Source: Acidimicrobiaceae bacterium (GTDB lineage Bacteria > Actinomycetota > Acidimicrobiia > Acidimicrobiales > RAAP-2). Taken from it: a stretch of 64,000 nt of DNA. Under the pieces are notes generated by a model. That model searched no databases and had not been told where the DNA came from. It saw nothing but the letters and a program-made list of their open reading frames with translations. A program made the position numbers and the translations under genes. Below are positions 3,787 through 45,053 of this stretch, in pieces. The DNA is taken from positions 1 to 64,000 of the forward strand of contig DAHUZS010000114.1 of assembly GCA_027315045.1 (NCBI GenBank), given 5' to 3'. The first letter of the stretch is position 1, and every line of letters starts with the position of its first letter.

Positions 3787-4356
3787 TCAGCGGTCGGCCG
3801 CGACCATTCGGAGTTGGATCATGGCGTCGTCCATGATGCTCGTGAGATCCCGGTCGTCGCGTCCGCTGGCCCACCGTTCCAGGGCCACCCGGAGCACCGT
3901 CATGCCGGCCTCGGCGGCGAGGGTTGCCTGTGGCTCGCCCACGCCCCGCCGCTGCAGGACCGTTGCCACCGCTGCGGCGTAGTCGGCGACCTTGACGAGT
4001 TCCCGCTCGCGCAGTTCGGGGTTGGCCGCGATGACGGCGTGGCGTTGGCGCGACAGGTCCCGGTGGAACTCACCGAGCATGGTGGCGGCGGCATCAAGAC
4101 CCCGGGCCACCGCGTCGAGGGGAGGGTCGGGCCTCGGCGCGCCAGCCACGCCGGCCACGATCCGGTCCCTCAGAAGATCGGAACCCCCGAAGAGCACCTC
4201 TCGCTTGTCGGCGAAGTGGCGGAAGAAGGTCCGCTCGGTCAGCCCCGCTCGCGCCGCGATCTCGGCTGCGGTGGTCTGATGGAACCCTCGCTCGGCGAAC
4301 AGGGCCAGGGCTGCTTCCTGCAGCCGGCCACGGCTGTCTGGCTGCCATCGACCCAC
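3787..4356 (-). CDS. TetR-family transcriptional regulator
   Basis: One-domain TetR repressor, with an N-terminal helix-turn-helix and an all-helical ligand/dimer domain. The HTH spans QTTAAEIAARAGLTERTFFRHF, with the conserved KREVLF stretch after it. Many relatives begin with a GRW-P-RGRL stretch, so I prefer the GTG at 4356, giving 189 aa; an ATG at 4392 would add 12 residues. The shorter choice leaves the palindrome at 4375-4393 in the intergenic gap, where an operator belongs. It is divergent from the SDR-family gene at 4416, its likely target along with itself. The inducer cannot be read from the sequence. Confidence 0.85.
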   Translation of the reverse strand: MGRWQPDSRGRLQEAALALFAERGFHQTTAAEIAARAGLTERTFFRHFADKREVLFGGSDLLRDRIVAGVAGAPRPDPPLDAVARGLDAAATMLGEFHRDLSRQRHAVIAANPELRERELVKVADYAAAVATVLQRRGVGEPQATLAAEAGMTVLRVALERWASGRDDRDLTSIMDDAMIQLRMVAADR

Positions 4357-41632: not shown

Positions 41633-43648
<2,016 letters not shown>

Positions 43649-43821
43649 CTTTCCGAGCCTACGGGGGGCCGGCCCCTCGATGACCGGGCCCGGGTGTCAA
43701 GGGCTGATTCTCGGTGATCGACGGGCGAACCAGCGCCCAGGGCCAAGGTTGGGGCCCGTTCTTGGCCAGCGAGCCCCGGTGATCTGCGCGCCCCGACTGG
43801 CCGGAGGCCCCCTTTTCATGA

Positions 43822-43881
43822 CTGTGAGGATCCCAGGCGCAGCGCAGTGAGTCTGCTGGGCTGCGCCTGGGATCCTCACAG
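43822..43881. repeat. Perfect 22-bp inverted repeat (stem-loop)
   Basis: The left arm 43822-43843 is the exact reverse complement of the right arm 43860-43881, with a 16-nt loop. It sits 20 bp beyond the menE-like stop and 173 bp upstream of the DUF255 start (both minus strand). It may terminate menE, but no T-tract follows on either strand; a dispersed palindromic element is also possible. Confidence 0.75.
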
Positions 43882-43901
43882 ACGCTCCTATGGCGCGTCA
43901 T

Positions 43902-45053
43902 TCAGGACAGCGCGCTCCGGCGGACCTTGCCCGAGGCGGTCCGGGGGAGCGAGGCGACGAGGACCAGCTCCTTGGGCCCCGCCCACGGGGCGAGGTGCTC
44001 GCCGGCCAGCCCGGCCAACTCGCCGAGGGAGGGGGGATCGGCGTCGTCGACCGGCACCACCCAGGCCACCACCCGCTCGCCCCACTCGGGGTCGGGGCGC
44101 TTCCACACCGCCACCTCGCGGACCTTGGGGTGGCCGGCCAGGACCATCTCGACCTCGCCCGGCCAGACCTTCTCGGCCCCAGTGACCACGATCTCGGCCA
44201 ACCGGCCGTCGACCACGAGGCGCCCGTCGTCGTCGAGGTGCCCACCGTCGCCGGTGGCCAGCCAGCCCCCGGTGCCGCCGGGGCCGGGCACGGTCGGGTC
44301 GGTGCCGTCGCGGTAGGCCCGCAGCTGCATGGGGCACCGGAGGAGGATCTCGCCGGGGGCCCCGCCCTCGGCCACGCCGGTCCCGAAGCCGACCTCGACC
44401 CCCTCGAGGGGCACCCCGTCGTAGACGACCCCCGAGCCAGTCTCGGTCATCCCGTAGGTGGTGACCACATTGTCCGGCAGGTCCCGGGGCGCCGCGGCCC
44501 CGCCGAGGACGATGCAGCGGAACACCGCGGGGTCCAGGCGACCGAGCGCGGTGGCCACCAAAGAGACGTGGGTGGCCCGGCCCCTTCGGCCAAGCGATTC
44601 GACGACCGAGGCGTCGAAGGCCGCCAGGACCTCGAGGGGGGTCGCGGTGAGCAGGGCCCGGGTCACGACCGAGAGCCCCCCGATGTGGGCCAGCGGCAGG
44701 CAGCACAGCCACCTGGAGGTGGCCGGGTCGGCGTGCACCGCCTTGGAGGTGGCCCGGGCCGAGGTGGCCACCGCGTGGTGGGTCAGGACCGCCGCCTTGC
44801 GCCGGCCGAGCGATCCGGAGGTCGCGACGACGAGCGCGTCGCCCGGCTCGACCCCCCGGCCCCCGGTGAGCCGGCGCTCCCCGTCGGCGTCGAGGAGGAC
44901 CGATGGGGCGAGCACCGCCACCAGCTCGGCCGCGGCCGGTGCGGGGAGCCGGCGGTCGAGCACGCAGGCGGCGTCGCCGCGCTCCCAGACGCGCACCAGC
45001 GCGTCGACGAACGCCGGCCCGCCGTCGAGGTCCAGGGCAACGAGGTCGGGCAT
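43902..45053 (-). CDS. menE: o-Succinylbenzoate-CoA ligase MenE-like AMP-forming ligase
   Basis: ANL-superfamily acyl-CoA synthetase, 383 aa, shorter than most relatives (about 450). It has the ATP loop TSGSLGRRKAAVLTH, the CLPLAHIGGL region, the adenylate motif TTYGMTETGSG, the hinge GDGGHLDDDGRLVVDGRLAEIVVTGAEKVWPGEVE and a C-terminal catalytic lysine in PRTASGKVRRS. Position beside menB, menA and menD supports activation of o-succinylbenzoate in menaquinone synthesis. The start at ATG 45053 is 24 bp from the divergent menB start. The strong stem-loop at 43822-43881 follows its stop. Confidence 0.86.
   Translation of the reverse strand: MPDLVALDLDGGPAFVDALVRVWERGDAACVLDRRLPAPAAAELVAVLAPSVLLDADGERRLTGGRGVEPGDALVVATSGSLGRRKAAVLTHHAVATSARATSKAVHADPATSRWLCCLPLAHIGGLSVVTRALLTATPLEVLAAFDASVVESLGRRGRATHVSLVATALGRLDPAVFRCIVLGGAAAPRDLPDNVVTTYGMTETGSGVVYDGVPLEGVEVGFGTGVAEGGAPGEILLRCPMQLRAYRDGTDPTVPGPGGTGGWLATGDGGHLDDDGRLVVDGRLAEIVVTGAEKVWPGEVEMVLAGHPKVREVAVWKRPDPEWGERVVAWVVPVDDADPPSLGELAGLAGEHLAPWAGPKELVLVASLPRTASGKVRRSALS

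What the first reader, a model, noticed from the sequence alone, without database searches (positions are those of the whole stretch)
43822..43881. Perfect 22-bp-arm stem-loop between menE and the DUF255 gene
Forty-four paired bases with no mismatch and a 16-nt loop is far stronger than other hairpins here. It could be a terminator, but no T-tract is present; it could be a dispersed element or a processing site.
Basis: seen in the sequence. Interest (0 to 1): 0.65.

Follow-up and report, generated by a model that had tools for sequence, protein, structure and literature searches.

The report
Stem-loop left by an RNA-guided transposon
The perfect stem-loop behind menE is the leftover left end of a small RNA-guided transposon (IS110 family) that had landed on the edge of another transposon; it is a new example of a known kind of mobile DNA, not a terminator.

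Summary
The hairpin is real: 22/22 paired bases, 16-nt loop, no T-tract. It is not a terminator but part of a 77-bp remnant (43823-43899) of an IS110-group insertion sequence, here called ISX. The left arm and loop are the start of ISX's left end, where IS110 elements encode their target-choosing bridge RNA; the right arm runs into a mirrored ISX right end, hence the perfect stem. The remnant lies between a decayed second IS110-family element (ISA, 43716-43821) and ISA's own target, the CTGAATG at the menE stop. The same draft genome holds another ISX left end (C3) and a right end (C78). In eight relatives the flank of the left end matches a guide inside it; with the C3 guide/window flank pair added, the true pairing is the unique best of 362,880 permutations, and the window flank fits the C3 guide at 11/11 positions. 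Right guides fit in six elements (best of 720). A genome of the same genus (G001) carries the mini-element, minus one arm, at another gene. New member of a known kind; how the mirrored junction formed, and whether the mini-element moves in trans, is inferred.

The parts
43822..43881 (+). The hairpin: 22-bp perfect arms (43822-43843, 43860-43881) and 16-nt loop. + strand is the ISX left-end (LE) orientation
   Evidence: matches G000:C3 at 98% and the LE of an IS110 element in G517 at 85%, E 6.6e-10
43823..43899 (+). 77-bp remnant (mini-element) of IS110-group element ISX: LE start TGTGAGGATCCC... through a mirrored right end (RE) finishing GCGTC
   Evidence: LE boundary from 8 relatives that all start TGTGA; RE boundary from four other genomes and C78
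43881..43899 (-). ISX right-end terminus GACGCGCCATAGGAGCGTC, reading on the - strand straight into LE TGTGAG (an RE|LE junction)
   Evidence: RE matches in other genomes begin exactly at GACGCTCCTAT with the transposase C-terminus behind it
43812..43823 (+). Left target sequence CTTTTCATGACT, identical to the left guide in the ISX left end on contig C3
43900..43905 (+). Right target ATTCAG (reverse complement of CTGAAT at the menE stop); the same bases follow the ISX right end on C78
43803..43821 (-). Left end (TCATGAAAAGGGGGCCTCC) of a second IS110-family element, ISA
   Evidence: ISA left ends in related genomes; window match E 0.0015
43716..43799 (-). Decayed ISA transposase fragment (QSGRADHRGSLAKNGPQPWPWALVRPSI)
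   Evidence: 57% identical over 28 aa to the G028 ISA transposase, pairwise E 6e-9; that protein hits PF01548 and PF02371
43902..45053 (-). menE-like AMP-binding ligase; its stop codon lies within the CTGAATG target
41633..43648 (-). DUF255 / Thioredox_DsbH gene downstream

Best explanation
The hairpin is the terminal part of the left end of an IS110-group insertion sequence (ISX) surviving as a 77-bp remnant without recombinase. ISX relatives carry, from this end inward, a non-coding RNA gene whose target-binding loop holds a left and a right guide matching the two halves of the insertion site, as in bridge RNAs. ISX's guide is addressed to the outer edge of another IS110-family element, ISA (left target CTTTTCATGACT, right target ATTCAG), so ISX inserted between ISA and the CTGAATG at the end of menE. 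Shown: identity of the LE and RE pieces, their boundaries, the target/guide match and the ISA remains. Inferred: the perfect stem arose because the copy here is a fold-back of an RE|LE junction (as in the circular or tandem form), probably by template switching at the natural 15-bp inverted repeat of the ISX left end. Also inferred: it has no function of its own now, beyond being a very stable 3' structure if menE is transcribed through it.
For: (1) Second copy at C3:37-96, 98% identical, continuing into left-end sequence where the stem is only 15 bp. (2) The same sequence lies about 200 nt upstream of an IS110 transposase in G517, a different family. (3) RE terminus 43881-43899 is the conserved end behind the transposase C-terminus in C78 and four other genomes. 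(4) Eight relatives share TGTGA starts and a foldable left-end RNA with 17 of 42 pairs showing two-sided changes. (5) Flank versus left guide: the true pairing is the unique best of 362,880 permutations (78 matches, permutation mean 40); window flank versus C3 guide 11/11. Right guide: unique best of 720 over six elements. (6) ISA left end and transposase fragment beside it. (7) The exact LT+LE joint occurs only in the window and G055, both at an ISA edge; the exact RE+RT joint only in C78.
Against: The ISX body is not in this draft assembly (C3 and C78 both end inside it), so its recombinase and right guide were not seen. The C3 copy's own left flank (CGCGTCATGGAC) matches its guide in only 4 of 11 positions. 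The right end here is mirrored, so this is not a simple internal-deletion product. The core dinucleotide could not be fixed consistently on both sides.
Confidence: 0.9

Rival explanations
1. It is a transcription terminator or 3'-end stabiliser of menE: the hairpin ends the menE transcript or protects it.
For: It starts about 20 nt behind the menE stop and is extremely stable.
Against: No T-tract on either strand, no terminator-like site; the sequence is explained as an IS left end and its position as a target site. A later, incidental effect on RNA ends is not excluded.
Confidence: 0.05
2. It is an independent repeat family (REP/BIME-like or a MITE of an unrelated transposon) that happens to lie beside IS remains.
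For: Palindromic, intergenic, more than one copy.
Against: Only two copies in the genome and none in reference genomes. Both outer segments and the inner sequence match the ends of one IS110 element, at the site its guide predicts.
Confidence: 0.03
3. A variant of the best explanation: a full ISX inserted at menE and decayed in place, and the identical junction in G001 arose separately in the same way.
For: Both loci are at ISA|CTGAAT junctions, as targeted insertion would give.
Against: 39 of 39 bases including the mirrored RE|LE junction are identical at two different genes in two species; the same rearrangement twice is unlikely. Shared descent, transfer or movement of the already rearranged mini-element fits better.
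Confidence: 0.15

Closest known systems
IS110-group insertion sequences with bridge RNA (IS621; PMC11208160) / seekRNA (ISEc21; PMC11187229)
   Same: DEDD + Transposase_20 recombinase, long non-coding left end upstream of the gene, short right end, target-binding loop with left and right guides that follow the insertion site, abutted RE|LE junction
   Different: The window copy has no recombinase and no guide region. ISX targets the edge of another IS, and its left end has a 15-bp inverted repeat that became a perfect 22-bp stem here
IS4321/IS5075 (IS1111 group), which target terminal inverted repeats of Tn21-type transposons (cited in PMC11187229)
   Same: An IS110/IS1111-family element addressed to the end of another mobile element
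   Different: IS1111 group, whose RNA lies downstream of the gene; here an IS110-group element with an upstream guide, aimed at the edge of an IS110-family element
ISEc21, whose target is a conserved stretch inside IS3-family transposase genes (PMC11187229)
   Same: IS110-group element guided to another IS
   Different: Target is inside a transposase gene rather than at the element's edge

Membership tests
IS110-group element (ISX, to which the remnant belongs) | DEDD_Tnp_IS110 + Transposase_20 recombinase | tested here: met
   Relative with the same ends (G048): PF01548 E 1e-12, PF02371 E 7e-16. In the own genome only the last 39 aa are seen on C78; absent from the window copy
IS110-group element (ISX, to which the remnant belongs) | Long non-coding left end between element edge and recombinase gene, with a structured RNA | tested here: met
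   About 200-300 nt in eight relatives; consensus fold with 17 of 42 pairs changed on both sides
IS110-group element (ISX, to which the remnant belongs) | Left and right target guides match the insertion site | tested here: met
   Left: unique best of 362,880; right: unique best of 720. For ISX itself only the left guide could be read; C3 ends before the right guide
IS110-group element (ISX, to which the remnant belongs) | Donor-binding loop matching RE and LE ends | tested here: met
   TCACAG (complement of CTGTGA at LE) in 8/8 and ATCAGGAGC (like RE ATAGGAGC) in 7/8 relatives; by inspection, no shuffle control
IS110-group element (ISX, to which the remnant belongs) | Same core dinucleotide on both sides of the insertion | tested here: inconclusive
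   LE side usually CT, RE side TC; boundary ambiguous by one base
Intrinsic (Rho-independent) terminator | Stem followed by a T-tract | tested here: not met
   sequence
MITE (trans-mobilised mini-element) | Both parental ends retained and several copies at independent sites | tested here: inconclusive
   LE kept, RE mirrored; same mini-element at menE and, with one arm lost, in G001 at another gene
REP/BIME | Many dispersed copies in one genome | tested here: not met
   Two copies in 2.3 Mb
REP/BIME | Associated RAYT transposase | not tested
   No search was made for a RAYT gene

The most novel reading that the evidence does not exclude
The 77-bp fold-back element is a non-autonomous, bridge-RNA-guided mini-transposon: made from the RE|LE junction of an ISX circle, it presents usable ends and is moved in trans by ISX to the edges of ISA elements, giving IS110 elements their own palindromic MITEs.
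Probability: 0.15. Interest if true: 0.6.

Novelty: new member of a known kind. Interest (0 to 1): 0.38.

Why it matters
It turns an unexplained hairpin into a readable insertion history: an IS110-family element landed at the menE stop codon, and a second IS110-group element was steered by its guide to the edge of the first. It adds a natural set of left-end RNAs with guides and targets that can be checked against each other, and a case of one RNA-guided IS aimed at the edge of another. For annotation it warns that strong hairpins without T-tracts near gene ends may be IS110 debris.

Tried and rejected
Rfam found nothing in the window. Exact scans for the 22-mer in viral and genome collections found nothing, and a relaxed arm pattern gave only three unrelated organisms, judged chance. 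A pattern for the GACGC...GCGTC stem across the family gave only scattered single hits outside this genus. Reading the hairpin as the left end of ISA itself was rejected: most ISA copies lack it, and it lies outside the ISA edge. Reading it as an IS target palindrome of REP type was rejected when the outer piece turned out to be the ISX right end. In the left-guide test the G448 guide was entered one base off, which lowers its score; the result stands without correction.

Full report
What is there. The two arms at 43822-43843 and 43860-43881 are exact reverse complements over 22 bases with a 16-nt loop, much more stable than shuffled sequence, and no T-run follows on either strand. At a matching chance of about 0.29 per base pair in this G+C-rich DNA, a perfect 22-bp inverted repeat with a short loop is expected roughly 1e-5 times in 64 kb (own estimate). 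Both neighbouring genes run on the - strand: a menE-like AMP-binding ligase ending at 43902 and a DUF255/Thioredox_DsbH gene starting at 43648.

Copies. In the 2.3-Mb, 147-contig draft genome there is one more copy, at the very start of contig C3 (37-96, 98% identical). There the stem is perfect for only 15 bp, because one side continues into GCGAACGTGACTCTTTTCATGACTGG rather than back into CTCACAG. Reference genome and viral collections hold no exact copy. A genome of the same genus, G001, has CTGAATGACGCGCCATAGGAGCGTCTGTGAGGATCCCAG, identical over 39 bases, but at a different gene and without the second arm.

The right-hand piece. The segment 43881-43899 (GACGCGCCATAGGAGCGTC on the - strand) also stands at the end of contig C78, directly behind the C-terminus of an IS110-type transposase. 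Homologous ends in G005, G115, G048 and G055 begin at exactly the same base with unrelated flanks. It is therefore the right-end terminus of an IS110-family element, called ISX here. C78's flank beyond it is ATTCAG, as at 43900-43905.

The left-hand piece. In a genome of another family (G517) the hairpin sequence lies about 200 nt upstream of an IS110 transposase start (E 6.6e-10 for one genome of 397 searched). A protein search over 397 genomes of the order gave more relatives. Seven of these plus G517 have a left end starting TGTGA and a long non-coding stretch before the gene. The aligned left ends fold into two large loops, with 17 of 42 pairs showing changes on both sides.

Guide test. 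[quoted passage not shown] seekRNA in PMC11187229). Here the bases just outside each left end recur inside it, for example AACTTCTGACTG in G517, CCACTTGATT in G448 and GGAGCGCAGCTG/GGAGCGAAGCTG in G173. Over nine flank/guide pairs (eight relatives plus window flank against C3 guide) the true pairing scores 78 matches against a permutation mean of 40 and is the only arrangement of 362,880 to reach it. Right guides of six elements fit their own right junction best out of 720. The window's flank CTTTTCATGACT equals the guide on C3 at all 11 positions compared. The C3 copy's own flank fits its guide poorly (4 of 11), which remains unexplained.

What ISX landed on. The left target plus preceding bases (GGAGGCCCCCTTTTCATGA, 43803-43821) is, on the - strand, the left end of another IS110-family element, ISA. 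ISA copies in related genomes mostly follow CTGAATG or a close variant. In the window ISA survives as this 19-bp end and a transposase fragment at 43716-43799 (pairwise E 6e-9). The CTGAATG holds the menE stop codon; the same holds for a gyrA-like gene on C80 and two further cases (the gyrA name is by eye). So most of the menE-DUF255 gap is nested IS debris. Exact LT+LE joints occur in 172 family genomes only in the window and G055, both at ISA edges; the exact RE+RT joint occurs only in C78.

Why the stem is perfect. Reading the + strand, the remnant runs from LE start through the loop and the 15-bp right arm, then into CTCACA and GACGCTCC: the reverse complement of an RE|LE junction. Such abutted ends exist in the circular form of IS110 elements (PMC11187229). 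A template switch at the natural inverted repeat of the left end in a circle or tandem would give this product; this is inference. G001's version fits slippage between CTG/CAG repeats that removed one arm. The identical rearranged junction at two genes in two species suggests movement, transfer or shared descent of the mini-element; movement in trans is possible but not shown.

Verdict. An IS110-group left-end remnant with a fold-back right side, guided to the edge of another IS110-family element. The kind is known; the instance, the guide set and the fold-back are new. Organism names were not available for these genomes.

Noticed in passing
G000:C80 about 4024-4072 (L033); window 43902-43905; L030, L039: ISA/ISX-type insertions sit at CTGAATG where TGA is the stop codon of the upstream open frame (menE, a gyrA-like gene on C80, a long frame in G004), so the gene product is left intact.
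   Followed up: partly
G055:C334 36763-36807 (L012, L113): A different ISX remnant of about 30 bp (CTGTGAGGATCC...CACAGCGTC) at the same kind of ISA edge, beside a decayed ISA copy.
   Followed up: partly
L009:1-600 (G000:C3): The C3 hairpin copy is followed by a broken WD40-like reading frame (named by eye); its left flank does not fit the ISX guide.
   Followed up: no
L117-L123 left ends: The left ends also seem to carry donor guides: TCACAG (complement of the LE start) in all eight relatives and ATCAGGAGC (like the RE end) in seven.
   Followed up: partly
L116:1-1682: In G517 the IS110 gene seems to run in frame into a helix-turn-helix transposase-like sequence, and an IS3-type orfA lies just upstream: further nested insertions (named by eye).
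   Followed up: no
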